Shown here: positions 1 through 62,756 of the stretch, in pieces | Layout: each line of letters starts with the position of its first letter | How positions within the stretch are numbered: position 1 is the stretch's first letter | Assembly (NCBI GenBank): GCA_004335835.1 | Contig: RWJK01000880.1 | Coordinates: forward strand, 1 to 64,000 | Source: Scenedesmus sp. ARA3 | Lineage: Eukaryota; Chlorophyta; Chlorophyceae; Sphaeropleales; Scenedesmaceae | Length of the DNA stretch: 64,000 nucleotides | Reading direction: 5' to 3' | The notes under the pieces: generated by a model | Databases searched by the model: none | Seen by the model: the letters and a program-made list of their open reading frames with translations, nothing else | Told to the model about the DNA's origin: nothing | Translations under genes and position numbers: made by a program

Positions 1-1510
1 TGTGTGGGCGGGCGCAGCGACTGCGGCTGCCTCATTCTTTTCCTGCAAGGCGTGAGGTATGAAAGTGAGTGAGGGCCGCTGCATTCCCAACAGCATCAAG
101 CCTGCCTCACCAAGTGGCTTGCAAAAGCTTGTGGCGAACCAGAAATGAAGCCGTACACATACAGCATGCGCATAACTGCGCTGCGCAGTCCACCCCAATT
201 TGACCCAGACACAGGACCCTTAAAACTGCACCCTAAACCTGAAACCAGACGTACCTGTGTGACTTGGCGATGCACGCCAAAGCAGATGTTGTACTTGATG
301 CTCTCTGAGAACACCAGCGGCTCCTGAGCCACCACCTCGCATGCCAAAAGTTTGGCATGACCAGCAACCTCGGCTGAGTGGCCACACACAACACCCGCAA
401 CAACTCACTGCACAACAAATACCAGGGTGCAAGACACCAGCTCCAGACCAAGCAGTAGCACCGGCACTGGCCCTCACACACCTGTGTGACTTGGCGGTGC
501 ACGCCGAAGCAGATATTGTACTCAATGCTCTCAGAGAACACCAGCGGCTCCTGAGCCACTAAGGCCACAGCCTGGTGCAGGAAGGTAGTATCAATGCTGC
601 GGATGTCAATGCCGTCAAGGGTGAGGCTGCCGCGCTGCGGATCATAAAACCTGCAGCAAGTTTGACAGCAGCACAATGCAAACAATGAGCAGCGCCACAG
701 CCTGGTGCAGGAAGGTGGTGTCAATCTGGCCCACATCCACGCCGTCAAGTGTGAGGCTGCCGCGCTGCGGGTCATGAAATCTGCGGGTTCAGCAGGTACG
801 GCACGTTCCACAGTGCAAATCTTCAGCGTGTTGCCCAGTGCGCGACGAGCTACGCTTCAAGTGATGGCAACAGCTGCAGCAGCAGCAGTGAATGAATCAT
901 TCTTGCATCATTCTTGCACGATGGTTTGTGCCGGCCTGGTGCAGGGAGGTGGCGTCGATGCTGCGCACATCAACACCATCAAGGGTGAGGCTGCCACTTT
1001 GGCGGTCGTAGAACCTGCGTGCGCCTTTGGTAGATCGAATGGTTCCGGCCCAACGCTGGTTTCATATGACATCTTGATGTGCAGCCAAGCGGCTGCTACC
1101 TTGCTGCACCGTCCAGCTACAAATTCAACAACTCTCGCACATGAGCAGCTGCTGTGACCAACCCCTTGCGCTCATCAACAATGCCCGTGACAAGCAGCGC
1201 TGCCTTAACCAATGCAGAACCAGCAACTGCTGGCGGCATGCTCACCGCTGCACTAGCTTCACCACTGTGCTCTTGCCGCCTCCCGATGCCCCTACCAGCG
1301 CCACACTCTGCCCAGGGCTTATGGCCAGGCTGAAACCTGACAGCACCCAACTGTCGGGCCTCGAGGGGTAGGCAAAATGAACATCTTTGAATTCTAGGGA
1401 GGCGCCAGCTGGCGAGCCGGCGGGTTTAAGGGTTCCTGAGGGCGGCAGCTGCGGGGTGCGGTCCATGAGCTGGAAAACCCTGCGGCCTGCGCCAACCTGG
1501 TGACAGCAGT

Positions 1511-1550
<40 letters not shown>

Positions 1551-1628
1551 GCGGCAGCGGCAGAAGTCAGCACATGCAGCTGAGGGGTGCGGTCCATGAG
1601 CTGGAACACCCTGCGGCCTGCGCCAACC

Positions 1629-1693
<65 letters not shown>

Positions 1694-4600
1694 GCGGCAG
1701 CGGCAGCGGCAGCAGTGAGGACATACAGCAGTCGGCACATGCAGCAACAGCAGAAGCCAGCACATGCAGAGGAAGGACAGGTACAGGAGCCACACAAAAC
1801 AACAAGGACAAGAGGCAACTGGACTTAGCGGTTGGAGATCACAGCCACATAAATTGCATGTGCAGGCACAGTCAAGCAGAGATGTACCTAACCACCGCTG
1901 CGATGAGTGAAGCTGCCGTCATGCAGCAGCAGCAGCAGCACCCGCACCAGCAGTAGCACCAGCAGCAGAAGCACCGGCGGCGGCAGCAGCAGCAGCAGAA
2001 ATGACTTAAGCAGATGTATCTACTCACCGCTGCAATGAGTGAGGCTGCCGTGCCAGCGATGCCTCCCGCGCTGCTGCAGACAGAAAGCAAGCACAAACGG
2101 AGCACAAACAAAACACACGCTACTGTATTGGAGCAGCTGCTTACCGCTGCGATGAGTGAGGCTGCCGTGCCAGCGATGCCTCCCGCGCTGCCACTGACAA
2201 ACAAGCAAGCACAAACAGGGCACAAACCAAACACACGCTACTGTATTGGAGCAGCGGTAAGTAGCAGCTACTTACCGCTGCAATGAGTGAGGCTGCCGTG
2301 CCAGCGATGCCTCCCGCGCTGCCGCAGACAGAAAGCAAGCACAATCAGAGCACAAACCAAACACACGCTACTGTATTGGAGCAGCGGTAAGTAGCAGCTA
2401 CTCACCGCTGCAATGAGTGAGGCTGCCGTGCCGGCGATGCCTCCTGCACTGCCACTGACAAAGATGGCGTACAGCATGTAGGCGTTGAGGTCTCCTAGGG
2501 ACATGTCACCCTGCAGCACCAGCACCGCGCCGTACCTGGTGGCAGCAGCAGCGGCAGCGGCAGCAGGAGCAGCAGGGGCTGGATGTCAAGATGGTATACA
2601 GCATGTAGGCGTTGATGTCGCCTAATGACATGTCACCCTGCAGCATCAGCACTGCGCCGTACCTAACAGCAGCAGCAGCGGCAGCAGCAGCAGCAGGGGC
2701 TGGATGTCAAGATGGTATACAGCATGTAGGCGTTGATGTCGCCTAATGACATGTCACCCTGCAGCATCAGCACTGCGCCGTACCTAACAGCAGCAGCAGC
2801 GGCAGCAGCAGCAGCAGCATCTTCCACAACAGCACCTTCCAGCATGGACATCCAGATGCATTTGATCTACGTTTGTACAACACAACATAAATTGTAACAC
2901 AATGCGTCGAAAGCAACCAGTTTGCGTAACACCAGTACAGCGATTATAGCACATTGCATTCTCACCGCAGCACCACCATCATGGAGCCGAATGCAAAGGG
3001 GGTGGCTGAGCCAGTAAACACACCACATCGATTACTTGTGTATAGCACAACATATATACTCTGATCATATTATAGTCTCACCACAGCACGACCATCATGG
3101 ATCCAAAGGCAAAGGGGATGGCACTGCCAGTGAAAACTCCACCTGCAGACCGCAGCGCAGCACACCCGTAGACAGTGGCAGTCAGTTGACGGGGGTGGCA
3201 GTGAGACACAAGAGCAACGGGCATGGAAACTTGGCTTGACTTGCAAGCACCTTCCAGCTTTCACAGTGCGCATCACATCTGTTGCTTACTGCAGTTGGCG
3301 CCGTCTTTGCATTTTAATATCACTTTTGCAGTCCACTCACTTGCCACTGCGCTCTTCAGGCCCCACGACAGTATGTCATTTGCGGCAGATGTGTACCTGC
3401 AGCACAATTGGCAGCAGCGGCAGCTCCAGCCGCATCAGCGCATTGCAGATGAAATGCATTGCCTGCTGGCGGGTTTGGTTACAAACGCCTGTTCATGCAC
3501 GAAATACAAAGAAACAACAGCTGCATGCTCATCAGTATGTTGTATGAAAAGGCGTGTTGCACCACTGCCGCCATTGTGATAGGCTGACCGCTGCTGATGT
3601 CCATCACTCACTTGCGCACGATGTGTCCCTGCTTGGCGAATGACTTCACGGTGCGTATGCCTGGCAGCACCTCCTGCACGGTGGCTGCCCCAGCCCCCAA
3701 ATCCAAACCCCAAAAATACCAACACAGGCCTAGCATTTCATCAATTACAGCTAGTCTGTGCCACTGCTCACTTGCGCACGATGTGTCCCTCTTTTGCAAA
3801 CAACTTCACAGTGCGGGTGCCTGGCAGCACCTCCTGCGCAGTTGCTGCCCAGCCCCCTAAACTTTCGACCCTAGATGCTGGCCATCCGATGCATTGGGTG
3901 AGTGTGCTGTGCTGCCCTCCGCATCTAGCACATGTATGCATCAGCAGTAACAGCAACTCTTAAACATTGTTTGCAAAGCCCAAGCAATGTACCCAAGACG
4001 GCCTCTGCGCGTTGCTCACTTGCGCACGATGTGTCCCTCTTTTGCAAAAGACTTCACTGTGCGAATTCCCGCCAGCACCTCCTGCGCGGTGGCTGATGCT
4101 GCCGCTGCTGATGTCAGCTGCGCCGTCACGTAGCGCTTGTTCAGGCCTGCAGCAGTTGAAGAGATAAAACAACAAGTGCAGGAGACTTGGTTGTCAAGCA
4201 CGTGGCAAAGAAGTGTGCGGTACGTGCAAGGCGGCTGCTGCTGATGTCAGCTGCGCCGTCACGTAGCGCTTGTTCAGGCCTGGAGTAGTGAAGGAGATAA
4301 ACAATAAGTGCAGGAGATTTAGTTGTCAGGCAGGTGGCAGGAGATGTGTAGGGCAGGAGTGAGGCGGCTGCTGCTGATGTCAGCTGCGCCGTCACGTAGC
4401 GTTTGTTCAGGCCTGAACAAAGCAAAGGATAGGTGAAAACAAGATTATGGTGTGAGGCAGGTGGCAGGATATGTGTGAGGCAGGAGTGGGGCAGGTGTGA
4501 GGCTGCTGCTGCTAACGTTATGTTGCATGTCAGTAGCAGTGGCAGAACGTGTATTGCAATAAAAGCATTTCTTTCAACAGCCTTGCCGTGCCACTCACAT

Positions 4601-5239
4601 GCACAAGGCCGCAACGCCAGCAGAGTCACCAGCAGGGTGGCGCAGGTGAGGATGCTGGCATCACGCCATTGCTGTAGCTCTACGCTCCAAACATGCTGTT
4701 CCCGTGCCACTCACGCGCAAAGGTCCGGAACATGAGCAGTGTCACTGGCAGTGTGGCGCAGGTGAGGCTGGCCAGCCGCCAGGAGGTGATGACGATGTGC
4801 AAGATAAGCGGTTTGCAGTGTGGGAATTCTGTTTCTGCCGTGCATGTGACACACTACAGATGGGGCCTTGTGTGTGCTCTCATATGTTGCTGTAAGCTGC
4901 CACTGCTGAACCCCTGACACCCTAGCCCCGAAAGCAATGTTTTGGCTGCGCATGAAAGCCCTAGAAACTGTTGCGTTGGCTGCAAGACTCACGCGCAAAG
5001 GTCCAGAACATCAGCAGTGTCACCGGCAGGTGAGGTTACCAAGAGTATTTGAGTGTAGGTCACAGTAATGTTATGTAACCTTCCTGCCGGGCATGTTGTA
5101 ACATCCCTGCTGTGTCACTCACGCGCAAAGGTCCGGAACATCAGCAGCGTCACCGGCAGTGTGGCGCAGGTGAGGCTGGCCAGCCGCCAGGAGGTGATGA
5201 ACATCATGACAGCACCCAGCACACACGTCAGCAACGACC

Positions 5240-5276
<37 letters not shown>

Positions 5277-5776
5277 CACCGCAAAGACAGCCTTCAAAAT
5301 GCTACGTACTGCTGCTGGGCCAACTGCTGCAGCAATGCTGCTGCGGGGCTCTGCTGAGTGTGACATGCTGCTGTCACCCAACACAAATGCTGCTGCTGCT
5401 GAGCTCCAGCGCTCCTGCTTCTGCCAGACCTAAATGCTCCGGCTACACCTGCTGCTGCTGGGCCGTAGAACCGCTGCTGCTTAAGCCGCCAGGCCCCAGT
5501 GCTCATGCTGCTACTGTTGCACTGCCGCCCTCACCTAAGCATCATGCTGATGCTGGTGGTGGCTGCATCCTTCATCGCGTTGCCAGGCCCAAATGCACCT
5601 GCTGCTGCTGCTGCTGCTGCTGCTGCTAAGCTTCCGTGCTGCTGCTGCTGCTACCAACATGCTCACCTGAGCATCATGCTGATGCTGGTGGCGGCTGCAT
5701 CTTCCATGGTGCGCATGATGAAGGTAAGCATGTACACTGTAATACCTCCCGCTGCCGCGGCAGCAGGATGCTATTC

Positions 5777-5814
<38 letters not shown>

Positions 5815-6344
5815 CTCCAGTGCTGCTGCTGCAGCCAGGCCCCGCTGCTGCTGCTGCTACCAGCATGCTCACCTGAGCATCATGCTTATGCTGGTGGTGG
5901 CTGCGTCCTTCATTGCGCGCGTGTCCTCTGACAGCCTGTTGCTGAGCTCGCCCACGGGGGTGACGTCAAAGAAGGCCACCTCCTGCTGCACCAGCTGCAT
6001 GGTTGGAATCAGCAGCAGCAGCAGCAGCAGCAGCAAACCCATTCAGCAGCAGCAGCAGCAAGCCCATTCAGCAGCAGCAGCAGCAAACTTATACAGCAGG
6101 GCAGCAACAGGCTTCAACATGGTGTGGAGGCATGCTGAGAAGTGACGTCAAAGAAGGCCACCGCCTGCTGCACCAGCTGCATGGTCGAAATCAGCAGCAG
6201 CAGCAAACCCAGTCAGCAGCAGTAAGGCAGCAGCCGGCTTCAACATGCTCTGGAGGCATGCTGAGGGTGATGTCAAAGAAGGCCACCTCCCGTTGCACCA
6301 GCTGCAGTGATTATATAACGACCAGGAAACAGCAGCAGCAGCAC

Positions 6345-6383
<39 letters not shown>

Positions 6384-7049
6384 CAGATCAGAATGATGGC
6401 ATGCCAGGTAAGCTGTGCCGTGCAACTGTGTAACGGAAGGCCGCCTCCTGCTGCACTAGCTACAGTGAATGAACAACGACCAGAAAACGGCAGCAGCAGC
6501 AGCAGCAACAGCAGGTCAGAATAATGGCATGCCAGGTGAGCTGTGCTGTGAAGACGTGTCACAGAAGGCCACCTCCTGCTGCACCAGCTGCAGCGCACAT
6601 ACCACAACCAGCAGCAGCAGCAGCAGCAGTAGCAGCAGGTCATAAGAAGGCTTGCCAGGAGAGCTGTGACATGAAACTCTGCCAGTCAAGGCCGTTTGCT
6701 GCTGCACCAGCTGCATGACTGACATCAGCAGCAGCAGGGTAGCCAAGCATAACAAGAGTGTAGCTAGATTCTACACAGTGACATTGAACAGGGGCACCTG
6801 CAGCAGCAGCAGCAGCAGCAGCAGCCTGGCGCCCCGCCCACCTGAGTGAACAGCCGCACCCGCAGCCTGCACATCACCCTCTCAGCTGCTGAGTCGAACA
6901 GGTACGCCCTTAGCCCACTGGCCAGGCCCCCAGCACCCATCACTGCCAGCACTAGGCATTTATATCAGCAGGGTAGCGGAGCATGATAGGAGTGCAAGCT
7001 ACATACTATGCAAGGATGTGAAAAAGGTACACCTGCTGCTGCAGAAAAT

Positions 7050-7088
<39 letters not shown>

Positions 7089-7603
7089 GCAGCAGCAGCG
7101 TGCCCCCCACCCACCTGAGTGAACAGCCGCACCCGCAGCCTGCACATCACCCGCTCAGCCGCTGAGTTGAACAGGTACGCCCTTAGCCCACTGGCCAAGC
7201 CACCAGCCCCCATCACAGCCAGCACTAGATACAAATTCTGGTCCAGCAGAGCGCGTGCTGCTGCTGCAGTGATCTGGCCTGCTGCTGCTTGTGTGCATGC
7301 ATCAATCAGCCGGCCTGCTATCTTTGGGATGGCTAGGTTTGCGAGTGCTGCAATGAAGAGGAAGAAGGTTGCGATTGTGATGGTTCCTGCTTCGGGTTTT
7401 GCTTCTGCGAGCAGGCGCAGCACGCCCACACGGGGCGCTGCATCTGCATCTGCATCTGCTGCTGTTGGTAGTGCTGCTGCTGGTGCTGCTGCTGGTCCTG
7501 GTGCTGGTGGTGGAGCTTCCACATCTGTTGCATCAGAGCCATTCTGCAGGAGGGGCTGACGTTGCTCGTGCTGCTGCTGGCGGGATTGCTGCCTTCTGCC
7601 CAT
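1..7603 (-). CDS. ABCB/TAP-type half ABC transporter, 3' end beyond the left edge
   Basis: Membrane exporter with one transmembrane domain fused to one nucleotide-binding domain, probably working as a dimer. The start ATG is at 7603; exon 1 (7603-7115, 163 codons) has an Ala/Pro-rich leader, then a membrane helix ([19 protein letters not shown]). Exon 2 (5994-5870) reads [20 protein letters not shown], the typical ABCB cytoplasmic loop. Exon 3 (5238-5123) and exon 4 (4146-4020, ending [15 protein letters not shown]) follow in phase. Later exons are near 3160-3090 ([15 protein letters not shown]), 2540-2400 and 1500-1242, the last holding Walker A ([10 protein letters not shown]). The Q-loop segment (VAQEPLVFS) lies near 565-490. 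The ABC signature, Walker B and H-loop would fall left of base 1. I could not place the exon between 3300 and 3990 by phase. Almost every exon has partial tandem copies in the adjacent introns. The closest families are plant ABCB26/27 (TAP-like) and bacterial MsbA/LmrA; the substrate is unknown. Confidence 0.88.
259..1020 (-). repeat. Partial tandem copies of two nucleotide-binding-domain exons
   Basis: The segment coding [12 protein letters not shown](E/K)YNICF occurs near 260-330 and 490-560. The segment coding [16 protein letters not shown] plus the following residues occurs near 570-655, 700-785 and 930-1015. In the third copy the protein is altered (for example DPQRGS reads as DRQSGS). 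The copies lie in the intron space between exons of the ABC transporter. Confidence 0.75.
1455..1745 (-). repeat. CAG tracts and a duplicated exon head in the ABC transporter
   Basis: Two copies of the segment coding [15 protein letters not shown] lie at about 1455-1500 and 1575-1630. Each is preceded, in gene direction, by a long trinucleotide tract (CAG on this strand, CTG in the sense strand) at about 1503-1552 and 1631-1712. The left copy joins the Walker A exon; the right copy is followed by intron-like sequence. Confidence 0.8.
1890..2790 (-). repeat. Ladder of partial exon copies (transmembrane-domain exon of the ABC transporter)
   Basis: The block coding [18 protein letters not shown] recurs near 2030-2080, 2145-2195, 2275-2325 and 2400-2460, with a shorter copy at 1890-1925. 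Intervening spacers share sequence of their own, giving a period of about 115-130 bases. The block coding GAVL(V/M)LQGDMSLGD(L/I)NAYMLY occurs near 2460-2540, 2590-2665 and 2710-2785; the last two, spacers included, are nearly identical. Confidence 0.85.
2950..3165 (-). repeat. Duplicated exon coding VFTGSA(I/T)[11 protein letters not shown]
   Basis: Two copies, at about 2963-3015 and 3083-3160, both end in a good GT donor in gene direction. The 3083-3160 copy has a clear CAG acceptor (GTCTGCAG) and is the better candidate for the real exon. The other reads T for I at one residue. Confidence 0.75.
3600..4425 (-). repeat. Partial copies of ABC transporter exon 4 on both sides of the real exon
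   Basis: The 3' part of exon 4 (ATAQEVL(P/A)[10 protein letters not shown] plus donor) recurs at 3607-3690, 3770-3850 and, as part of the real exon, at 4018-4100. The 5' part ([16 protein letters not shown] plus acceptor) occurs in the real exon near 4085-4146 and again at 4225-4290 and 4365-4420. So the donor-side end is copied downstream and the acceptor-side end upstream, always into introns. Confidence 0.85.
4590..5240 (-). repeat. Partial copies of ABC transporter exon 3
   Basis: The real exon 3 lies at 5238-5123. Its donor-proximal end recurs at about 4990-5035 (short) and 4710-4795 (long, close match), with a more diverged copy at 4590-4660. All retain the ACTCAC donor context on this strand. 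They lie downstream of exon 3 in gene direction, inside the intron before exon 4. Confidence 0.8.
5525..5925 (-). repeat. Three copies of the exon 2 end coding [14 protein letters not shown]
   Basis: Copies lie near 5530-5582, 5660-5725 and 5865-5925 (the real exon end). Each ends in a CTNAG|GT donor in gene direction. CTG tracts (sense CAG) at about 5598-5630 and 5780-5814 separate them. Confidence 0.75.
5955..6722 (-). repeat. Six copies of the exon 2 head coding [11 protein letters not shown]
   Basis: The acceptor plus the first codons of exon 2 recur at about 5955-6000 (real exon), 6143-6183, 6264-6307, 6432-6466, 6555-6595 and 6683-6718. Copies further from the exon are increasingly altered at the protein level. 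CAG tracts lie between them, the longest at about 6332-6382. Confidence 0.8.
6836..7235 (-). repeat. Duplicated end of ABC transporter exon 1
   Basis: The segment coding the end of exon 1 (LRAYLF(N/D)[13 protein letters not shown]) plus the GTGGGT donor occurs in the real exon at 7115-7235 and again at 6838-6957. The copy differs by few bases, for example N to D in one codon. A CAG tract (about 7047-7089) lies between them. Confidence 0.85.
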
Positions 7604-8868: not shown

Positions 8869-8921
<53 letters not shown>

Positions 8922-8950
8922 CCAACAGCAGTATCACATGGCATGTCAGC
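7604..8950. promoter_or_regulatory. Divergent intergenic region between the ABC transporter and uS2m
   Basis: About 1.3 kb separates the transporter start (7603, minus) from the chosen uS2m start (8951, plus). It should hold both promoters. I see no protein-coding exon and no clear core-promoter motif. A CAG tract at about 8874-8922 could be transcribed as 5' leader of uS2m. Confidence 0.45.
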
Positions 8951-9673: not shown

Positions 9674-9713
<40 letters not shown>

Positions 9714-10107: not shown

Positions 10108-13100
10108 AGGTGAACGACCAGCTGCTGGTGCAGCCTCAGGCGGTGCTGCTGTCGCTGGTGCGCGCGCTGCACGTCATACGCGGCGTGCTGCAGGAGGTGC
10201 GTGGCATGTGGCCTGCGTGCTGCTGTCAGGCTGTGTGTTGCGCGTGGGTGATGTAAGCAGGCGTAATGTGTTATTGCATGGCAGCTACAAGGGGACGCGC
10301 TGTTATCAACATCTGCAGCAGCAGCTAGACTGGCGCACTGGACATAAGGGTGCCTGCAGGACGGTCCCGTGTACGTGGTGGAAACCAGCGCACACTTGAT
10401 GTCAAATGTGCCATGTATGCCGTTTGCTGCTGCAGTTCACTTGTTACCCTTGCAGGACGGCTACGTGTACGTGGTGGGCACCCACCGCCTGCTGTCCCCG
10501 CTGGTCACAATTTTGTTTCTCGTACTCTTCCTCTCACTCTTTTGCTTTGTTTCACGCTTGCAGGACGGCCATGTGTATGTAGTGGGCATCAACCGGCTGC
10601 TGTCCCCGCTGGTCACACTTCTGTTCCTTGTACTCTGCTGCTCACACTTGTTGTTCCTGTCACACTTGCAGGATGGCCACGTGTATGTGGTGGGCACCAG
10701 CCGGCTGCTGTCCTCGGCTGGTCACACCTTGTTGCTGGCACTCTTTGTCTCACTTTTGCTTTGTTTCACGCTTGCAGGACGGCCATGTGTATGTGGTGGG
10801 CACCAACCGGCTGCTGTCCCCACTTGGCCACACTTCTTTCCGCATAATCTGCTGCTCACACTTTTTTTTGCTTGTGCTACAATTGCAGGACGGCCACGTG
10901 TATGTGGTGGGCACCAACCGTCTGCTGTCCCCACTGGTGAAGGCCGCTGCCGCCAGCTGCCTCAACCCCAACATGTGGTTCACTTCATCAGCATGGTCGC
11001 CCGGCACGCTCACCAACTACGCCAGCAGCAGGCGGCTCTTCAAAGAAGGCCACCAGCCCAACAGGAGGTAAGTCAAAGAGGCTGTCTGCAAGATACGTTG
11101 TGCAGCGATGCACGTAATATCTTTTTGCAAGGCAGCAGAGAAAGCAGAGGAAGCGGCTCTTCAAGGAGGGCCACCAGGAGGTGAGGCAAAGAGGTGAGGC
11201 AAAGAGGCTGCTGAGGTGAGGCAAAGAGGCTGCTGACTGCTACACCTCTTGAAACATGCATGATAATGTTAAGTCAAAGTGGCTCTTGATGTCGCAGCTG
11301 CTTGCCGCCACCCTTGTCCTTCAACCTTACTTTCACTCTTCTTGTACCATTTTCACGTAGGCTGCTTGCCGCCAAGGGCCTGCGCATGGTCACTGCGCTG
11401 TGTCCCTCCCCACCCACCAACTATGATCAATCCTTGTGTCGTTTGCTGTTGCTTGCCGCGCAGGCTGCTGGCTGCAAAAGGGCTGCGCATGGTCAACTCG
11501 CTGTGCCCCGAGCCCCCGCTGTCCTCCTCCCCAGTGCCGCGGCTGTCCTGGGACGACAAGTGGCTGCTGTACAAGCGCAGCAGGCGGCCCGGCTACAGGC
11601 TGCTGCTGGAGCAGCTGCTGCAGCAGGAGGACGCGCTGCACAGGTGGGGCGCATGTGTTTGTTATCTGGTTTGTTTAATTCTGTTCCTGCTGACGGCCCG
11701 GCTACAGGCAGCTGCTGGAGCAGCTGCTGCAGCAGGAGGATGCGCTGCACAGGTGAGGGGCTGGGCTGTACAGCCGTGCGGCATGTGTTTTGTTGTGTTT
11801 TCCTGTAGCCTGGCTGGCGGGCTAGCAGGCTGTTGGCTGCTGCTGGAGCAGCTGCTGCAGCAGGAGGACGCGCTGCATAGGTGAGGCGCATTCAGTTAGT
11901 GTTTCGTAAGTGTTCCTGCAGGCTGGCTGGTTGGCTGCTGGCTGCAGCAGGAGAAAGCGCTGCACAGGCGCATGTGGTTTGTTTGTTGGTGTTTTGTTCG
12001 TGCTGGCTGGCTGGCAGGCTGGCTGGCTGACTGGCTGGCTGGCTGGCTGGCAGGCTGGCTGGCTGGCAGGCTGGCTGGCTGGCTGGCTGGCTGGCTGCTG
12101 CTGCTGGAGCAGCTGCTGCTGCAGCAGGAGGACGCGCTGCACAGAGGCGGCCTGCTGCAGCTGCAATGAGGCTGGCTGGTGGCCGGCTTCTTCTACTGAG
12201 CCACACATAGGGTCTGCGCATTGCAGTGATGCTGCATCTGTAGTACCTTCATGACTCAACACAACACAAGCACTGCTACACCTGCCTGCGTGCTGTGCAG
12301 GTTCAAGCCGGCGGGCTCGCTGCGCGGCATGCCGCGCCACCTGCGGCTGATGGTGTTCCTGGACACCACGCGCAACACGGTTGCAATTAAGGAGGCGTTC
12401 AACCGCAACATCCCTACCATATCGCTGGTGAACACCACCAAGGACTTGTCACTCATCACGTACCCGGTGCTCGCCCGTGACTTCAGGTGTGTGTGGCGAT
12501 GCGCATTCAGGTGCTTGTTGCTGCTCTGTTGGATGTAGATGGTGTGGGTTTCCTGGTGTGGCATGTGTGACTTTGTGGTCGACAGAACGGTTTAGGACCT
12601 CGTCTTGGCTTGCATTTTGGTCATGTTGGCCATCAAGGAGGCCTTCAACCGCAACATCCCCACCATCTCACTGGTCAACACCACCAAGGACTTGTCATTG
12701 ATCACATACCCGGTGCTGGCGCGCGACTTCAGGTGCGGCTTTATGTGTGACAGCGTTGCCTACTAGCAGCAGCAGATGATTCCTGCAAATTCGTCCTGCA
12801 AGCTTGTTGCTGAGCGATGAATAGCATGTCGCTACACGCCTAGCTTGACCCTTGCTGTGCTGGCGCTGGATTTTGACTGTGCATCTGCTGCGCTTCGGCT
12901 GCGACGGTATGCCTGCAAATGCATGTGCCGGTGTTTTGCTGCTCCTACGTGTATGCATTGTGTCTGCCTGACCTCTGCCATCGCGCGTGCCTGAAGCACA
13001 GATGCGGAGCTGCACTGTTGAGCTGTCCCTCTCCTCCTGCGCAGCTGTGCTGGATGCTAACCCAGCGTCGCATGCATCCTGCTGCTGCATCCTGCTGTTT

Positions 13101-13674
13101 CTTGCTGGATCTGCTGCTGCTTGCAGCCCCGCCTTTGTGCACTTCTTCCTGGACTGGATCGTCAAGGTGCATGCAATTGTGTCTGCCCTGCCCTCTGCCA
13201 TTGCGCGTGCCTGTAGCACAGACTCAGGGCTGCACTGTTGAGCTGTCCCTCTCCTCCTGCGCAGCTGCTTTTGTTGCTAATCTTCGCATGCTTCCTGCTG
13301 CTTGCTGCCTGTGTTCTTGTGCCGCAACGCAGCCCTGCCTTTGTGCACTTCTTCCTGGACTGGATCGTCAAGGTGGCAAATGCACTTGTGCTTGCCCGAC
13401 CTCTGCCATTGTGCGTGCCTCAAGGACAGGCTCGGAGCTACGGTATCGAGCTGTCCCTCTCCTCCTGCGCAGCTGCTAGTGTTGCTAACCCAGCTTCAAA
13501 CGTGCCCTGCTGTGGCCGACTGCTGTTTGCTGCATGTCATTGTTTTCTGTGCTGCTGCGCAGCCCTGCCTTTGTGCACTTCTTCCTGGACTGGATCGTCA
13601 AGGTGGCCAACGCAGCTCCTGGGGAGGCAGGCAGGCAGCGGCAGCAGCTGCTGGAGGAGGCGCGGAGCGGCTAG
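8951..13674 (+). CDS. Mitochondrial-type small-subunit ribosomal protein uS2
   Basis: Component of the organellar 30S-type subunit. Seven exons join in phase: 8951-9394, 9722-9787, 10110-10196, 10889-11067, 11464-11643, 12301-12486 and 13563-13674, giving 417 residues. The start (two ATGs in a row at 8951) is a choice; the first 50 residues are Arg-containing and nearly free of acidic residues, as in a mitochondrial presequence, then a Gln/Ser-rich stretch follows. uS2 landmarks are HVYVVGTNRLLSPLVKAAAA, then WSPGTLTN (equivalent to the conserved GGTLTN), and a C-terminal part with VFLDTTRNTVAIKEAFNR and IPTISLVNTTKDLSLITYPV, matching the Rossmann-like end of S2. The protein is longer than bacterial S2 because of the N-terminal low-complexity part. 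Assignment to mitochondrion rather than chloroplast is inference: chloroplast S2 is normally plastid-encoded. Five of its exons have tandem partial copies. Confidence 0.87.
9661..9721 (+). repeat. (CTG)n tract running into a 3' splice site
   Basis: An interrupted run of CTG/CCG triplets ends in CTGCCAG directly before uS2m exon 2 (9722). It takes the place normally held by a polypyrimidine tract. Confidence 0.8.
10050..10109 (+). repeat. (CTG)n tract forming the 3' splice site of uS2m exon 3
   Basis: About 19 CTG units in a row end in CTGCAG at 10109, and exon 3 begins at 10110. Both intron end and splice acceptor are built from the triplet repeat. Confidence 0.85.
10345..10940 (+). repeat. 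Ladder of splice acceptor plus first 48 bases of uS2m exon 4
   Basis: Five clear units of about 110 bases carry CTTGCAG (or ATTGCAG) followed by a segment coding DG(H/Y)VYVVG(T/I)(N/H/S)RLLSPL. They start near 10457, 10561, 10671, 10777 and 10889. A sixth, diverged unit starts near 10359. Only the last continues into the full exon; the others leave the exon sequence at CTGGT. Spacers are pyrimidine-rich and similar to each other. The reading frame happens to stay open through several units. Confidence 0.9.
11030..11240 (+). repeat. Partial copies of the 3' end of uS2m exon 4
   Basis: The exon end coding RRLFKEGHQ, with its GTAAGT donor, recurs at about 11150-11180 with GTGAGG. Short repeats of GTGAGGCAAAGAGGCTGCTG then run to about 11235, so the donor region itself is repeated. 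Confidence 0.8.
11345..11520 (+). repeat. Duplicated head of uS2m exon 5
   Basis: Acceptor plus LLAAKGLRMV appears at about 11358-11400 and, as the real exon head, at 11461-11520. The upstream copy continues T-A-L-C-P where the exon has N-S-L-C-P. It carries both synonymous and amino-acid changes. Confidence 0.8.
11590..12170 (+). repeat. Copies of the uS2m exon 5 end plus a GGCT minisatellite
   Basis: The segment coding LLLEQLLQQEDALHR (end of exon 5, to 11643) recurs at about 11706-11752, 11835-11881, 11940-11970 (short) and 12099-12147. Between the last two, at about 12003-12100, lies a tract of GGCTGGCTGGCA/GGCT units with some 20 GGCT repeats. Confidence 0.85.
12385..12735 (+). repeat. 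Second copy of the uS2m exon 6 end, all differences synonymous
   Basis: Exon 6 ends at 12486. Its last 34 codons (AIKEAFNRNIPTISLVNTTK and onward to ARDF) recur at 12629-12730 with the same protein sequence. Twelve codons differ and every difference is silent. The copy ends in the same AG|GTG donor, but I see no strong acceptor directly in front of it. Confidence 0.92.
13118..13606 (+). repeat. Three copies of the acceptor and first 40 bases of uS2m exon 7
   Basis: Segments coding PAFVHFFLDWIVK begin near 13127, 13333 and 13563 (real exon). The first two leave the exon sequence just after AAGGTG, so each copy is flanked by AG and GT. About 150 bases upstream of each are also similar (GAGCTGTCCCTCTCCTCC at about 13021, 13241 and 13449). 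Confidence 0.88.
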
Positions 13675-14145
13675 AAGCGGAGTAGCGGCACCGCTGCTGC
13701 GCACATAATCAGACTAGTCTCAGCACTGTTGCATGGCCATGGAGTGCAGCGGCAGCAGCTGCTGGAGGAGGCGCAGAGCGGCTGGAGGGCGAGGTGCAGC
13801 AGCCAGCAGCGGCACTGCTGCTGCGTACATCATCAGACTGTTGCATGGCCATGGAGTGCAGCGGCAGCAGCTGCTGGAGGAGGCGCAGAGCGGCTAGAGG
13901 CGTGCACCAGTTAGAGACGCAGAGCAATGAGATGAGCGGCTGCAAGCAGCGCGTCGCTGCCGCGCAGGGCCAGCGCTGCATGTTTAAGAGGTGGAGGCTG
14001 CCAGCAGCGGCAGCTGCTGCTGGAGGAGGCGCAGAGCGGCTAGAGGCGGAGGTGCAGCAGCCAGCAGCGGCACTGCTGCTGCGCACAGCATCAGACTGTT
14101 GCATGGCCATGGAGTGCAGCGGCAGCAGCTATTGCAGGAGGCGCA
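13630..14145 (+). repeat. Copies of the uS2m terminal coding segment beyond its stop
   Basis: The last coding bases (GGCAGCAGCTGCTGGAGGAG through the TAG stop) recur near 13750, 13863, 14008 and 14122, each with GCGGCTAGAGGCG or GCGGCTGGAGG after it. These lie in the 3' flank or 3' UTR. Spacers also share blocks such as TAGAGACGCAGAGCA. Confidence 0.85.
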
Positions 14146-15157
14146 GCGCGGCTGGAGGCGTGAGCCAGCTAGAGACGCAGAGCAGGGAGATGAGCGGCTG
14201 CAAGCAGCGCGACGCTGCCGCACAGTACCAGCGCTGCACGGTTTGGTTTAGAGGCGGAGGCTGCCAGCAGGGCACTGCTGCTCGGCGAAGCACCAGAGTT
14301 GGCTGGGAGTGTTTTTGGACATGTGCTGCATTGTGTTGGGGTTGCCACCCAATATGTTGGGTCGAGCTGGGGTGTGTGTGTGTTTGCCTGGCCTCTGAGT
14401 GCGACGCAGTTGCTGCCAGCAGCGTATTTGGTGGCAGCGCAGCAGCAGCAGCATTGAGGGGGAGTGCCACTCATGCGGCATGTGGCAGGGACTGTGCGCG
14501 CACGCCACTGGCCAGCGCCTTGCCAGGCAGCGCTGCATGCGTTGTACACTTCTGCAAAATGCTGCTGGCCACTGGACATGCGCGGGGTCCTAAGATGGAT
14601 TGATACATCAGGATGGCACTGGCAGCACTTGTGCCGGTGCAGGGCCATGTGCATCACTCAGTGCCTGTTGTACTACTGAGTGATTGATGTGCCAGCTGGC
14701 ACGCGCATGGCTGCAGTTGCACTGCTGAGAGGGTAACCACTTCACTTTATGTCCGTGTCATTCTTAGTTATGATGGGATCGGTGGCTGTTTGACACCTGC
14801 AAGCGGGTCTGAGGGCATAGGGTAGTATGTTTGTACAAACACCCGGGTAGCTTTGACCGTCGTGCCAAGGACTGCTCAGCAGTGCTTCACCCGTCCTTCA
14901 GACAAATAAGAAACAGACTGCGCAAGCATCCGTGCAGCAAATAGTGATGCGGCAGGTGACAGACGCGTAGAGGACAGTAGTGGTTGCATTGTACGCCAAG
15001 CAGTCTGCAGCCGCACTCCGGCGATCACACGATCTGGCTGCTCATCAAGACTTAAAGTGCTCAATTCAAGACTGTTGGGAGCTTACACTGCTTCAACCAG
15101 CGCAGCAGCTGCGTTTGACCAAACAGCCTTCCCGCCTACAACCTACAGTTCGTCACG
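14146..15157. other. Intergenic stretch without a recognised gene
   Basis: It follows the uS2m 3' repeats. I see no conserved protein segment, no tRNA-like cloverleaf and no clear promoter. GC is lower than in the exons. Confidence 0.4.
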
Positions 15158-22339: not shown

Positions 22340-22865
22340 AAAGCTCCTTCACGCTGGCTGTGGCGCAAGCAGCTCACGCCCCAGCTGCTGCTGCCGCCCC
22401 TCAGTCCTGCTGCTACTGCCACGCCTGCCGCTGCCACCCCTAGGCACCATGCTGCTGCTGCTGCTGTCCGGGGCCACCGTCCTGCTGGCTGCTGCTGCTG
22501 CTACTGCTGCCGCCTGTGAGGCCAGCTTGTGACAGCGCCACAGCAGCTATCCCCACAAATGATGGCTTGGCGGTCAACACACTAGACCAACGTAACAGTC
22601 AAGTATGATACAGCCTGATGTAGGCTCTACATGGCTCTGTCACGCTGGCTGTGGTGCTAGCAGCTCACGGCCCAGCTGCTGCTGCCGCCCCTCAGTCCTG
22701 CTGCTGCTGCTGCTGCCGCCGCGCCTGCCGCCACCACCCCTAGGCACCCTGCCATGCTGCTGCTGCTGCTGCTGCTGCTGTCCAGGGCCGTCCTGCTGGC
22801 TGCTGCTGCTGCTGCCGCCACCAGTGAGGCCAGCTTGTGACAGCGCCACAGCAGCTATCCCGCCG
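22340..22865 (-). repeat. Downstream copy of the nucleotidyltransferase C-terminal coding segment
   Basis: About 220 bases around the stop codon of the nucleotidyltransferase (22635-22860) have a close copy at about 22345-22560, beyond the stop. Shared blocks include CACGCTGGCTGTGG, CCGCCCCTCAGTCCTGCTGC and GAGGCCAGCTTGTGACAGCG. The copy has several indels in the triplet tracts. Confidence 0.85.
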
Positions 22866-51799: not shown

Positions 51800-51892
<93 letters not shown>

Positions 51893-54628: not shown

Positions 54629-56084
54629 TCACTCCTGCTGCTCCTCAGTGCTGTCGTCCCACAGCTGCTGCTTCTGCCGCCGCCGGCTGGTGATGCGGTG
54701 CTTCTGGTCCAGCCGCGCCTCATAACGAGCCACGCCGCCCCGCCCGCTGACCACCTTGAGGGCGCCCTCGCGCCGCTGCTTGGCCAGCTGCATGACGCGC
54801 ACGTCGTACTCCTCCCGAGCCTGCACCAGCAGCAGCAGCAGCAGCAGCAACAAGCAGGCCGTCAACCTATGTTTCAGGGTTCTGATGTTTGTGGCCAGCT
54901 GCATGACGCGCACATCATACTCCTCGCGCGCCTGCGGCAGCAGCAACGGAAGCAGCAGCAGCAGCAGCAGAACGGGCACCTAAGTAATTGAATGCTGCAG
55001 TATATGGTGGAGCCATCAGCATCGCAGGAAAATTGCAGCACCTGCAGCCGGCTTCAGCAGAATCTACTGATTACATGCAAATGGCTGTTCCATTTGTAGT
55101 ACACCTGGCGACCTCATCAAGCTGCAACTGCCACCAGTGGCAACTACTGGCAAAGGTGGGAAGTTCACACATCACAAAGTTCGCACCTTGATCTCCGCCA
55201 GGAACTTCACGTAGTGCTCGTGGCGCTCCAGCTCAGCAGCAGTCACCGCACAGCCGGGCTCCGCCAGGTGCATGCAGTCCACAAACCTGCGGCAGAGCGG
55301 GGGCAGCAGTAATCATATATTGTATGTTGAGACATGTGTGGTGTTGCTGCTGCGTGTGGTGTGCGAGATGGAAATACACACCGTGCACACGCCCCACACC
55401 ACAAGCATGCAGTGCTCATGAAAAACACAACCTGTTCGTCACGAGCGCATGCTCACCAGCAGACATCAACGCCCCTTCTCTGCAACCTGACATCAACACA
55501 GAACAACAACACGTCCCTCGCATGCGACTAAGTAACACCACTAGCCTCTGTTGCTGGCCGGGCAACAGCAGCAGCAGCAGCAGCAGCGGCACAGCTATCC
55601 GCACCTGCAGCCGCCCTGTGCCTCCACTGCCGCATTGAACTCAGGGAACAGCCGTGCCAGGTCAGCGCTGGCCACCCTGTCCAAGGTGGGCTGGTTGAAC
55701 CCCGGGGTGTCAGCCATGAGCCCACCAAAGAGCAGCTCAATCACGCTCAACAGGACACCCTCAACATGACACCCATAAACAAGCAGGACCGGTAAACCAC
55801 ACAGCCCTGTCACTCGCTGTCCAGCAAACACAGCTTGAGCCGCACCTGCAGCCGCCCTGCGCCTCCACTGCTGCATTAAACTCGGGAAACAGCCGCGCCA
55901 GGTCAGCGCTGGCCACCCTGTCCAAGGTGGGCTGGTTGAACCCCGGGGTGTCAGCCATGAGCCCGCCAAAAGGCAGCTCGATCAGCGTCACGGTGCGCGT
56001 GGTGTGCCGCCCCCGCCCGATCTTTGACACGTCGCCAACTGCCAGGAAGCTGCGGGCAGGGTCTGCTGCTGCTGAGGGTGATGC

Positions 56085-56121
<37 letters not shown>

Positions 56122-57240: not shown

Positions 57241-57273
<33 letters not shown>

Positions 57274-58096: not shown

Positions 58097-58834
58097 CGTG
58101 GTGGGCTATGAACTTTGTCTCCTGCAAGCACACAGAAATAGCCTAGCTATGTGAGAAACTATGAGTTTGCTTGCAACAGCGAGTCGACAGTAAGATGTTC
58201 TCAAACCCTACAGGTGGTCACGGGCACATGTCATGACGACACACTTCAGGTCCCATCTGCCATGACAGCTCAGCCACACGCCAGGTTGTTGAACTCGTAA
58301 GCCGGGATTACAGCAAGGCTGCAGCTAGTCTTCTACTTGTGCTTGACCAGCCACACAATCAGTGTTGCTGATCTCGCCCATTCAAACGCAGCTAGCACAG
58401 CTGTCAGAACCATACCCCAAGCTGCTCTGCACTGCGGCAGAGCCCTGCATAATGAAACCACGCACAGAGCAACAACAGCAGTCGGCTAACCACGTTAGGC
58501 CATCACAGCGACTACGCTGTGCTGCAAGGTGCTGTCACAACAGCACGCACTGTACAACACTGTCACTTGCTGCCAGCCATCGCTGCCACCTCAGCAGCAA
58601 AGTCCAGCTTGCCCCCATCCTCTCTCTGCAGCCCCCAACTAACAGCAGCCCACATCAAAGCAGCCAGCACGGTTATGAATCCGGCGCACAGCTGTGGTGA
58701 CAAGCCTTGGCTTGGTGATGCAGACTAGCCAGAGCAATCACAGCTCCAAAGGCTGAAAACAAGTTCTGCTGCGACTCCAGTGTGCTGCAAGATCACAGAA
58801 ACACTTTCACAGAGACGCTGCCACAGAGACTCGG
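58097..58834. other. Gap between RsgA and EF-Ts with a copy of the EF-Ts 3' end
   Basis: Both flanking genes are minus-strand, so this should include the RsgA promoter. At about 58570-58630 it carries a copy of the last EF-Ts coding bases (CTGCCACCTCAGCAGCAAAG, then CTTGCCCCCATCCTCTCTCT), which lies beyond the EF-Ts stop codon. Confidence 0.75.
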
Positions 58835-59044
58835 TCACTTGCTGCCAGCCATGGCTGCCACCTCAGCAGCAAAATCTAGCTTGCCCCCATCCTCTCTCTG
58901 CAGCCCCTCCCCAACCTGCACCCGCAGCAGTGCTGACACGGTCAACCCCCCCTGCAGCTGCAGCTGCTGCGCCTGCTGCTTCAGCAGCTGTGAGACAGTG
59001 AGGCTGTCGTCAAGGAGGTACTTCTGGTCCAGCAGGCACACCTG

Positions 59045-59099
<55 letters not shown>

Positions 59100-62000
59100 A
59101 GGCACGTGGTGTGGGGCCAGCGAAATATGCAAATAGCATGTGCCATGTATGGTACAGAGGCACAGGGTTTGGTTTGTTGGGCATGTGCAGCAGCACTCTA
59201 GGCTTGTGCCTAGATCACACATAGCTAACGAGGCTCCTTGCCGCTCACAACAGCAGCATTTACGTGCAGCACCACACAAAGCAGCAAGACGAGATCAACC
59301 ACTCACGTCTTTGCACCACTTTGCCACCTTGCCATCCACAATCTTGGCCAGCACCTCCGCTGGCTTGCCCGGCATCTGCGCTGCTGTCGCAGACTCAAAG
59401 TCCGTGCGAGCAGCAGCCAGCGCTGCAGCCGGCATAGCCTGCCTACTGATGAATTGGCTAGCCATGCCTGCACTGTGCATGGCTAGGTTGGAGCCCAGCT
59501 GCTGCAGCTGCGCCTGCGCAGCCTGCAGGAAAAGTCAAAGTCAAAGGCTAAGTCAAACGTGAGTCGATGCGGTCACACACAGCAGCAGGTGGTGGCGGGA
59601 GCATCAGATAGACGGTCAACAGTCCAGTTACAACTGAGCCTGCACAGGCTGCAGGTAGTACGCCATGTGGCACATGACAAGATACATGTAGTAAAAGCAG
59701 CGGTTTGGCTTGCCTGCTGGCAGAGCAGCTGGCAAAACAAGTGTGCAGTGCACATGGCTCAGGCTGGCGCACAGCTGCAACAGCTCTGCTTGCCTGCCTG
59801 CCTGCGTGCCACAATAAGTCGAAGCAACAGTGCCAACCACTACACTGTACACAACGTGGCACAACCATCGGAAACAAAACCAACCGCAGAAGCTAGACTG
59901 TAGAGTTTGAACGCCCCACCTGTTCCAGCTGCGCTCCTGCCTGCAGCGCCACCACTGCTGCAATGCGGCCCGCGCCTGGCGCTACTGGCATGTGCACGTA
60001 GCTGGACACAACGCCTGCACAAGCAGTGTTGAAGGGGAGCGTGCACAAGTGGCACAATCAACTGCTGCACATGGATGCCTATGGCAGCAGTGTGGCGATA
60101 CTGCAGTATCACATGACAATCGACGTGGCGCCGCGCGTGTGACGTGGCGCCGCAGCACCCAAACCTGATGGTGTTTCTGCTGCAGCAGTCCCTTGAGTGC
60201 TTGTTCAGTCAACACACTGCCACCTGCTCAAAATTGTGCCCGCTGATCAGGCAATGACAATCATGTATTATGCATGCGGCTTGAGAAAAAAGCCAACACA
60301 TTGACCAATGACGCTCATTCTGGTGACACTACTACAGCCTAATTGACAACTGCTGCTGCGCTGACCAACGCTGACCCTATTGCCTCGCTGCAGCAGAAGC
60401 CAAGGCTGTTACTTACACCGCTCGTTGAGTCGCATAAGTATCGCTCCTACACATTTTGAAGCACTGCTGTGCACTCACCGTGTGGGCCCGCGCTGACCAG
60501 GTAGCCCCGCCGCAGCGCGATGTTCTCCCGCACCTGGCCCGCCAGCAGCGCACAGCCCTCCTCGATGCTGCTGCCATCACCCAGGCGCGCTGCCGCCAGC
60601 TGCGGCACAACACAGCAGCAGTTGAGACATCAGGTGCAGCAGCAACAGCAGCAGCAGTCAATTCATCTGCCACTGTAAGCAAGCTGTGCACATGCCAGCT
60701 GTGTCGCAACACAGCAGCAGCAGGCAGAGCACCCAGCAGCAGCCACAGAGGCACGATCAGGTCATGAGACGCTGAGCATGCCCGCGGGGTGCCACAGGTG
60801 TGCCGCAACGACTGTCATGACAGTACATCTGCAGCCCACTACTCGTAGAATGATCGGTAACTTACTTACTGAAAGTCAATCTCGTGCACCTGCCCTGCAG
60901 TTGCTGCTGCCGCCGCCGCCGCCGCCGCCGCCGCTGCTGCTGCTGCTCCTTGTGCACATACATCTGCAGCATCTCACCTGCTGAAAGTCGATCTCGTGCA
61001 CCTGCCCTGCTGCTGCTTCTGCTGCTGCCTGTGGTACCAGGCCCAGCGCCGCCTTTGCTGCTGCTGCTGCCAGCTGCTGGAAGGGTGCGGAGCGGCCCAC
61101 AAAGTCTGTCTCGCTGTTGATCTCCACCACTGACACCAGCTCGTGGCCCAGCTGCATGAAAATAACAAAAAAAGTAACAGAAGTGAGTTGTTATTGCTGT
61201 TGATCTCCACCACAGACACCAGTTCATGGCCCAGCTACAGGAGAACAACATAAGAAAGTAACAAAATATCTGACATTGAGGCAGCAGTGGACATTCATCG
61301 AGTAGGATCACAGAGAAGGCAGAGCACCACAGACACCAGCCCGTGCCCAAGCTGCAGGCCTTTTGAGTACAAAAATGATACCATAAGATACAGAGGCAGA
61401 GTTTGGTTGACTCGGAGGAACCCGAGTAGAGGTAGCTGGTTTCAACCAGCACTGCAGTTGCTGCTGCAGCAGCAGGGCAACTGATCTGCAAGGGCTGAAT
61501 CGCTGCATGTTTGACCTGGCCGGCTTGTATAGCCTCGTACTGCTGGACTTTGAATTCACGTTTTCCTAGTTACCACTGCACGCAGCCGCACCTGCGCCAC
61601 TGACACCAGGCCCGCAGAGGCGTGCCATATTGCTAGATTTCTAATTTGGCATGTTTCTAGTTGTTGTGCACGCGCATCTGTGTGCAACCAGCCGCACCTG
61701 CGCCACTGCCACCACGCCCTCCGAGGCGTGCCGTGACGCCTTCTTGACCGCTGCTGCCAGCCCCTTGAGGCGCAGCGCCTCCATGGCTGCTAGGCCCTAG
61801 TGACACCAGACCTTACTACTGCATGCAGCTGCACCTGCACCACTGCCAGCCTCATACAGCTAGCATCTTGCACACCTATCAATGTCCAATTTTCAAGCAT
61901 CATACTGCAGCCAGCCGCACCTGCGCCACTGCCACCAGGCCTTCTGAGGCGTGCCGTGACGCTTTCTTGACTGCTGCTGCCAGCCCCTTGAGGCGCAGCG

Positions 62001-62756
62001 CCTCCATGGCTGCAGCCATGTCCCAGTCAGATGCCGCCAGGCAGGACTGCGCACATTTCCAGACAATATGAACGAAAGAGAATGAGCAAGGCAGTGTAGC
62101 TGCTACAAGGAAGGTAGGCTTGAGGCGCAGCGCCTCCATGGCTGCGGCCATGTCCCAGTCAGATGCCGCCAGGCAGGACTGCGCACAGTTCCAGACAGTA
62201 TGAGCAAGACACTTGTATGAGCAAGACACTTGTATGAGCAAGACACTTGTATGAGCAAGACACTTGTATGGGCGAAGGATGTCTGATTGATTGAGTGAAT
62301 GATGGCAGCACCAAACTGAGCAGCAAGTGCAGCTGGCATTCCAGCCCCTTGAGGTGCAGTGCCTCCATGGCTGCGCCCGTGTCCCAGCCGGCTGCTGCCA
62401 GGCAGGACTGCGCGCAGCATTGTTTCATCAGATTTCCAGACAGTTTGAGCACGACATAGTCAGCCAAGGATGTAACACTACTTCACAGCACAAAAGCAGT
62501 CAGACCATAATACTACTGCTTGTCAACTGAGTGGTTGACGAGCTGGCAGCACGTGTTGAGCAGCAAGGGCAGCTGGCACTGCCAGCCTGATGGCATGACG
62601 TGGCAATACATACAGTTTGAAAAATCTTTTTGGCAGCTGCTGGCTGCCTACTGTACCTTCACATCTGCTATGGGAGCTCCGCTTGTCCTCCGGAGCTCCT
62701 TTATCATGTCCATCGCATTGGCAGGCATGCCCGCAGCGCTGTAGCTGCGGCCTGTG

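What the first reader, a model, noticed from the sequence alone, without database searches (positions are those of the whole stretch)
1..62412. Exon ends with their splice sites are copied in tandem into adjacent introns in nearly every intron-containing gene
In the ABC transporter, uS2m, nucleotidyltransferase, helicase, PSAG, GST, patatin-like, RsgA and EF-Ts genes, the terminal 30-150 bases of exons recur in the neighbouring intron. Donor-side ends are copied downstream and acceptor-side ends upstream; copies number one to five and usually decay with distance from the real exon. The same behaviour in nine unrelated genes suggests a genome-wide process that grows introns by repeated local duplication across exon-intron junctions. 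Alternatives are false tandem duplication from merging two haplotypes or a read-correction artefact.
Basis: partly seen in the sequence, partly recalled or inferred. Interest (0 to 1): 0.93.

Follow-up and report, generated by a model that had tools for sequence, protein, structure and literature searches.

The report
Exon ends serially copied into introns
In this green alga the ends of coding blocks have been copied again and again, in steps of about 122 bases, into the non-coding DNA next to them, and in the genes examined this goes with most of the difference between short and long introns.

Summary
The window is from Tetradesmus obliquus or a very close relative. Protein-guided models of 13 genes (78 introns; window plus sampled contigs) show exon-end copies in 29 of 78 introns and 9 of 13 genes; 1 of 1872 control pairs passes the same threshold. 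Successive copies are 80-165 bases apart in 55 of 70 cases (mean 122, SD 15) and 200-290 in 14. Intron length fits 310 + 122 bases per copy (r = 0.86). Changes unique to the working exon sit at third codon positions (7/0/33); those unique to copies fall on all three (62/60/116): diverging relics, not assembly errors. Best reading: recurrent ~122-bp tandem duplication across coding borders, kept alive by the conserved exon.

The parts
5995..7114 (-). ABC transporter intron 1: one donor-side copy (6829-6955 matches 7102-7228 at the exon end, 92.9%) and five acceptor-side copies
5239..5872 (-). ABC transporter intron 2: two donor-side copies
4147..5122 (-). ABC transporter intron 3: three donor-side and two acceptor-side copies
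3397..4019 (-). ABC transporter intron 4: two donor-side copies
2536..3081 (-). ABC transporter intron 6: one donor-side and two acceptor-side copies
1497..2405 (-). ABC transporter intron 7: three donor-side copies (spacing 130, 131, 117) and one acceptor-side copy
651..1245 (-). ABC transporter intron 8: two acceptor-side copies
10197..10888 (+). Ribosomal protein S2 intron 3: four acceptor-side copies, spacing 106-111
11068..12300 (+). S2 introns 4 and 5 (with the exon 11464-11643 between them): one donor- and one acceptor-side copy in intron 4, three donor-side copies in intron 5
12487..13562 (+). S2 intron 6: one donor-side and two acceptor-side copies
13672..14282 (+). Downstream of the S2 stop codon: tandem copies of the end of the coding sequence including the stop codon
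27109..27917 (-). Nucleotidyltransferase intron 3: three donor-side copies, spacing 142, 147, 130
25739..26989 (-). Nucleotidyltransferase intron 4: four donor-side and four acceptor-side copies
24253..24708 (-). Nucleotidyltransferase intron 7: two acceptor-side copies
44654..44695 (+). PsaG: copy upstream of the acceptor of the exon that carries 44746-44787 (92.9%, spacing 92); exon placed by reading the sequence, no gene model
55287..55845 (-). RsgA intron 3: 139-nt donor-side copy with its GT, spacing 241
54821..55186 (-). RsgA intron 4: acceptor-side copy, spacing 111
62047..62656 (-). EF-Ts intron 1: two acceptor-side copies
61152..61920 (-). EF-Ts intron 2: two donor-side copies and one acceptor-side copy
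58562..58635 (-). Copy of the last 70 nt of the EF-Ts coding sequence plus stop, downstream of the stop codon (74 nt, 95.9%)

Best explanation
Segments of about 122 bp (sometimes about twice that) that straddle the end of a coding block are tandemly duplicated over and over. Because only the copy continuous with the rest of the exon can encode the protein, selection keeps that one in use and the surplus copies fall on the non-coding side: downstream of a donor or a stop codon, upstream of an acceptor. They are spliced out or stay untranslated, and they decay largely without coding constraint. Shown here: geometry, step size, added length, direction, and the asymmetry of changes. Inferred: the exon stays conserved, so it remains a good partner for renewed slippage or unequal exchange with its old copies, and arrays anchored on an exon keep growing while repeats inside introns fade. 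Inferred by analogy: the first duplication may come from fill-in and end-joining of breaks with long overhangs. The cause of the ~122-bp step is unknown.
For: Exon-end copies in 29 of 78 introns, control 1 of 1872. Own introns reverse-complemented: 0 of 158 above 40, highest exactly 40. No repeat within exons and no exon-exon pair. 36 arrays, 70 successive spacings: 55 in 80-165 (mean 122.1, SD 15.0), 14 in 200-290, 1 between, none outside. Length = 310 + 122 x copies, r 0.86. Polarised changes in 20 arrays: exon-specific 7/0/33 by codon position, copy-specific 62/60/116; the third-position excess in the copies is what snapshots of the exon taken at different times would give (inference). Stop-codon ends copied in 2 of 9 genes, start-codon ends in 0 of 8. 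An S2 protein (P0125, 271 of 272 aligned residues identical) and a ketoacyl synthase protein (P0132, 422 of 424) are listed with longest contigs of 963 and 1568 bp, shorter than the unspliced genes (4.3 and 3.5 kb), so they look like transcripts that skip the copies (that they are transcripts is inferred).
Against: Uniform births predict about one detectable intron-only repeat per exon-end array (0.84-1.33), but only 2 of 48 introns without an exon copy have one, and one of those two (RsgA intron 2) contains 21-36 exonic nt by other measures; the exon-anchored persistence invoked to explain this was not tested. Intron-side flanks are more diverged than exon parts, also between two intronic copies (0.73 against 0.85 in 37 unit pairs; 18 of 37 spacer pairs do not exceed the chance level). 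Pooled over copies, identity does not fall with distance. Genes differ strongly (ABC 7/8, CDPK 0/10; permutation p 0.0004-0.0006).
Confidence: 0.58

Rival explanations
1. Border-targeted birth: the duplication itself is initiated at coding/non-coding borders, for example where chromatin or transcription makes paired nicks about 122 bp apart, so that intron-internal and intergenic repeats hardly arise.
For: Depletion of intron-only repeats (2 of 48 introns, against about one expected per exon-end array). Exon part averaging 54 nt on both donor side (10 arrays) and acceptor side (16 arrays), x/U 0.45 with SD 0.11. Step size shared by arrays of unrelated sequence, with a second class near double size.
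Against: The central position can also come from a detection limit of about 30 exonic nt plus a need to keep about 45 intronic nt at the working splice site (my inference; KS against uniform 0.2-0.75 gives p 0.059, against uniform 0.2-1 p 8e-6). No mechanism that recognises such borders as DNA is known to me.
Confidence: 0.28
2. Random tandem duplication everywhere, filtered only by purifying selection against broken exons.
For: It explains why copies lie on the non-coding side, why exon-exon repeats are absent, why stop-codon ends behave like donors and why start-codon ends are clean.
Against: Simulated births over 47 array-free introns give 0.84-1.33 detectable intron-only repeats per detectable exon-end array; observed are 2 introns against 30. 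Only 6 of 86 local pairs of the window lie outside the six gene bodies, which cover about half of it, and of those one is in PsaG and one is the EF-Ts stop-codon copy.
Confidence: 0.08
3. Assembly artefact: haplotypes merged side by side, or reads wrongly corrected or expanded.
For: The assembly is fragmented (1567 contigs) and read depth was not available.
Against: Copies differ from the exon by 6-7% at codon positions 1 and 2 and 22% at position 3, with different patterns for exon- and copy-specific changes. Up to five unequal copies per array. Two public T. obliquus CCT4 models (P0135, P0136) carry AKAKIMVAKAKIMV, which is what reading the start of an array copy as a 21-nt exon gives here; of 12 other CCT4 proteins looked at, 7 contain the preceding DLSLHYL, and of these 6 have AKAKIMV once and 1 lacks the segment.
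Confidence: 0.02
4. The copies are functional: alternative exon ends, decoy splice sites or stepping stones for recursive splicing.
For: GT or AG is intact in 55 of 62 copies found without using the junction (25 of 30 donors, 30 of 32 acceptors). Stops among copy-specific changes 1 against 6.4 expected. Two public CCT4 models use part of a copy as a 21-nt exon.
Against: Intactness is little above that of neighbouring exon dinucleotides (0.72-0.90). 18 of 66 copies carry a frameshifting indel. Copy-specific changes fall on all codon positions. Transcript-like proteins skip the copies in S2 and KAS.
Confidence: 0.03

Closest known systems
[quoted passage not shown] potato RdRp case, PMC4974935, passages read; Rogers 1989 and Hellsten 2011 as cited there)
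   Same: Local tandem duplication of coding sequence with splice signals; the surplus is removed by splicing.
   Different: There one duplication creates a new intron (or a new intron plus exon). Here existing introns are lengthened repeatedly, the surplus copies stay inside one intron or after the stop codon, and it is found in 9 of 13 genes tested.
Human introns built from tandem arrays that contain splice sites (Zhuo et al. 2007, recalled, not read)
   Same: Tandem units carrying splice sites inside introns.
   Different: Recalled as tied to alternative splicing; here each array is private to its exon, has a ~122-bp step, and the copies look inert.
Small tandem duplications from break ends with overhangs, Pol alpha-primase/CST and end joining (PMC8355091, passages read; [quoted passage not shown]
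   Same: Produces head-to-tail duplications; a plausible source of the first copy, with length set by the distance between nicks (my reading).
   Different: Nothing in the passages read ties it to coding borders or a ~122-bp step; no repair gene or break was examined here.
Introner elements and transposable elements in introns
   Same: Genome-wide intron change by added DNA.
   Different: No sequence family shared between loci was found here; the copies match the neighbouring exon.

Membership tests
Tandem-genomic-duplication intron gain (Rogers type) | One copy spans the donor and the next spans the acceptor, so the intron equals one unit | tested here: not met
   Of 108 pairs, 75 have one copy at a single junction and the other inside that intron, 27 are intron-intron, 6 other. 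By comparison the 6 are: two S2 and one EF-Ts stop-codon-end pairs, one ABC exon end copied into an intron outside the model, and two EF-Ts pairs joining copies in introns 1 and 2
Tandem-genomic-duplication intron gain (Rogers type) | The intron is absent from orthologues of close relatives | not testable with these tools
   No DNA of relatives was obtained; proteins only (one scan of bacterial and archaeal contigs found none)
Introner / transposable element | The same sequence in many unrelated introns | tested here: not met
   0 repeat pairs more than 3 kb apart in the masked window; the S2 intron-3 array finds only its own place in 87 Mb (which skips common words)
Tandem repeat array (minisatellite-like) | Head-to-tail units with uniform spacing in one locus | tested here: met
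   36 arrays, 55 of 70 spacings 122 +/- 15 bp; TRF finds arrays of period 108-146, and 214 and 258, at these places
Break-repair small tandem duplication | Dependence on end-joining and fill-in synthesis | not testable with these tools
   Needs mutants or mutation-accumulation lines
False duplication from merged haplotypes | Copies differ only like alleles | tested here: not met
   Divergence of copies and its codon-position asymmetry
False duplication from merged haplotypes | Read depth halved over the copies | not testable with these tools
   No reads available

The most novel reading that the evidence does not exclude
The nuclear genome of this alga has a DNA-level process with a quantum of about 122 bp (and its double) that is drawn to the borders between coding and non-coding DNA, splice junctions and stop codons alike. 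It ratchets introns longer one unit at a time, leaving a dated series of exon snapshots in its long introns.
Probability: 0.28. Interest if true: 0.92.

Novelty: new variant of a known kind. Interest (0 to 1): 0.78.

Why it matters
How introns get longer is usually put down to transposons and anonymous insertions (general knowledge). Here single events can be counted, ordered and tied to length (about 122 bp each), so intron growth becomes directly measurable. T. obliquus is reported with a mean intron of 462 bp against 230, 284 and 302 bp in three other Sphaeropleales (PMC5966456, Table 1, passage read), and this process could be the reason (not tested). The copies can also mislead gene finders, as the public CCT4 models suggest, and long introns store old synonymous states of their exons.

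Tried and rejected
An unsupervised gene finder drifted into CAG/CTG repeats, and a supervised one found at most 46 of 76 known introns with 57 false ones; neither was used. Two scripts failed and were mended. Gene models dropped: L005 and L018a (wrong protein), the essentially single-exon L005g and the uncertain SH2 model, ABC exon 10, PAP exons 9-10, PhyH exons 1-3; L019plus exons 3 and 4 were merged. The 21-nt CCT4 exon was removed. rest on 12 genes and 76 introns, on 13 genes and 79 introns, all still with that exon; one search repeats the headline counts with 78 introns.

Selection for coding in the copies was considered because copy-exon differences look coding-like (6.9/6.4/21.9%); it was dropped when polarised changes showed only a moderate third-position excess in copies. 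Selection for splice sites in the copies was not supported by the unbiased test. A CAGG motif as DNA target was considered, but several array donors lack it (cgc, gaa, gtg, gcg before GT). The central position of the junction was first taken as proof of targeting; it can be explained by limits of detection and function. A scan of bacterial and archaeal genome contigs for stray algal DNA found no relative. Ten paper searches were made: searches listed papers whose titles and abstract openings do not describe this pattern (one search gave the intron-gain paper PMC4974935), searches listed none, one search gave the break-repair paper, (nucleosome spacing) gave nothing used.
Full report
WHAT THE WINDOW IS. 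The window is the first 64,000 bases of contig 602 in an 87.27-Mb, 1567-contig genome. Its proteins match Tetradesmus obliquus almost exactly: RsgA 466 of 478 aligned residues, ABC transporter 508 of 514; S2 matches an unnamed protein at 271 of 272. The organism is therefore T. obliquus or a very near relative (inference). Pfam confirms the ABC transporter, ribosomal S2, PSAG, patatin, RsgA and EF-Ts; the MTPAP-like polymerase and GST hits are weak. No family was found on the minus strand of 27.8-37.7 kb.

THE REPEATS. With simple repeats masked, the window holds 88 repeat pairs: 86 direct, all within 3 kb, and 2 short inverted ones. 80 of the 86 direct pairs lie in six gene bodies covering 31.3 kb. 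Of twenty 10-kb regions from other contigs, 14 have local direct repeats spaced 80-166 bp; six of the twenty are 40-62% N.

GENE MODELS AND TEST. I wrote a spliced protein-to-DNA aligner and used near-identical proteins, or in two cases proteins of relatives, to place exons. After the exclusions listed under Tried and rejected there are 13 genes and 78 introns. Exon ends (up to 150 nt, simple repeats masked) were aligned to their own intron and to introns of other genes. 1 of 1872 foreign comparisons exceeds a score of 40. Of own comparisons, 16 donor sides and 21 acceptor sides do, in 29 of 78 introns and 9 of 13 genes. Own introns reversed (158 comparisons) reach at most 26; own introns reverse-complemented (158) reach at most exactly 40. 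By gene: ABC 7/8, S2 4/6, PAP 3/7, patatin 1/10, RsgA 2/4, EF-Ts 3/6, CCT4 6/7, KAS 2/4, DEAD 1/7, CDPK 0/10, L019plus 0/3, PhyH 0/3, L002g 0/3. This unevenness is not chance (permutation p 0.0004-0.0006).

STEP SIZE AND LENGTH. In 36 arrays (17 donor, 19 acceptor side) the 70 distances between successive copies fall into two groups: 55 at 80-165 bp (mean 122.1, SD 15.0) and 14 at 200-290, with one between and none outside. The copied exon part averages 54 nt on both the donor and the acceptor side in 26 single-step arrays. Introns fit 310 + 122 bp per copy (77 copies at score above 36 in 30 introns; r 0.86, slope SE 8.2). Medians are 595 bp with and 310 bp without copies (p 4e-9). All 14 introns of at least 600 bp have copies, 1 of 24 under 300 bp does. 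Copies need room, so part of this fit is built in; the informative point is that the slope equals the independently measured step.

WHAT THE COPIES ARE. In 20 arrays with two or more alignable copies, changes unique to the working exon are 7/0/33 by codon position and changes unique to one copy are 62/60/116. The first is a constrained exon. The second is mostly unconstrained; its third-position excess (p 3e-6) is what is expected if copies were taken from the exon at different times (inference). Stops among the copy changes are 1 against 6.4 expected, which leaves some constraint possible. 18 of 66 copies have a frameshifting indel. The nearest copy is more like the exon than the farthest in 15 of 18 informative arrays, although pooled over 68 copies the correlation with distance is not significant. 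GT or AG survives in 55 of 62 copies located without using the junction, little more than neighbouring exon dinucleotides. Proteins P0125 (S2) and P0132 (KAS) are listed with longest contigs of 963 and 1568 bp, shorter than the unspliced genes, so they look like transcripts (an inference), and they skip the copies.

NOT ONLY SPLICE SITES. The end of the coding sequence with its stop codon is copied downstream in 2 of 9 genes (S2, EF-Ts; the CDPK model lacks its last codon), and start-codon ends are copied upstream in 0 of 8 (the DEAD gene had only 176 bases upstream). An unrecognised 3'-UTR intron at these two ends was not excluded. No direct repeat lies within an exon; of 31 comparisons of exon interiors with flanking introns one exceeds the threshold, the long RsgA exon whose copy is 139 nt. 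So the rule looks like 'end of a coding block' rather than 'splice site'.

THE PUZZLE. Of 48 introns without an exon copy only two have an intron-only repeat, RsgA intron 2 and PhyH intron 1, and RsgA intron 2 shows 21-36 nt of exonic sequence by other measures. Simulated ~121-bp duplications placed at random over 47 array-free introns, aged 0.02-0.16 substitutions per site, give 0.84-1.33 detectable intron-only repeats per detectable exon-end repeat. As an empirical measure of power, after masking exon-derived parts a repeat is still seen in 14 of 30 introns with copies. Either births prefer coding borders, or arrays anchored on a conserved exon keep renewing themselves while others fade. I favour the second as needing less that is new, but it is untested. 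A result against even decay of plain tandem units: spacers diverge more than exon parts even between two intronic copies (0.73 against 0.85 in 37 unit pairs; 19 of 37 spacer pairs exceed chance), and in 24 of 41 pairs with exon parts at least 90% identical the flank beside the junction is not above chance. Flank evolution between births, array ends, or gene conversion of the exon part could cause this; none was tested.

ARTEFACT CHECK. Read depth could not be examined. Against an artefact: the codon-position asymmetry, up to five unequal copies, presence in other contigs, and CCT4. Both public T. obliquus CCT4 models (P0135, P0136) contain AKAKIMVAKAKIMV; here that peptide arises by reading the start of an array copy as a 21-nt exon. 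Of 12 other CCT4 proteins looked at, 7 contain the preceding DLSLHYL; 6 of these have AKAKIMV once and 1 lacks the segment; and two unnamed proteins (P0176, P0174) align here without that exon. So the two other assemblies very probably contain that copy too (inference).

LITERATURE. Ten searches; none of the listed titles or abstract openings describes this pattern, and three searches listed nothing (details under Tried and rejected). Read in passages only: PMC5966456 (intron lengths), PMC4974935 (intron gain by tandem duplication), PMC8355091 (small tandem duplications at breaks). Zhuo et al. 2007 is recalled.

Noticed in passing
L021:6692-7455 (CCT4, minus strand): Two public T. obliquus CCT4 gene models (P0135, P0136) carry a 7-residue repeat (AKAKIMVAKAKIMV) that arises here from reading part of an intronic exon copy as a 21-nt exon; six other CCT4 proteins (P0176, P0145, P0141, P0143, P0146, P0188) have AKAKIMV once and P0137 lacks it.
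   Followed up: yes
window 62198-62270: A perfect 17-bp minisatellite (4.3 copies) inside EF-Ts intron 1, unlike the ~122-bp arrays.
   Followed up: no
window 51801-51895, 59047-59098, 12002-12097: Long CTG/CAG runs and a GCTG run, here in or beside introns; similar runs lie before several acceptors and inside array spacers.
   Followed up: no
window 43878-44016: A short direct repeat (39 nt, 92%, spacing 100) upstream of the PsaG exon; possibly another array in that gene.
   Followed up: no
window 22343-22861: Two direct repeats (41 nt, spacing 291; 45 nt, spacing 308) at the 3' end of the nucleotidyltransferase gene, whose last exons were not settled.
   Followed up: no
13 genes: Genes differ strongly in array load: most introns of ABC, S2 and CCT4 have copies, none of CDPK's ten; the cause is unknown.
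   Followed up: partly
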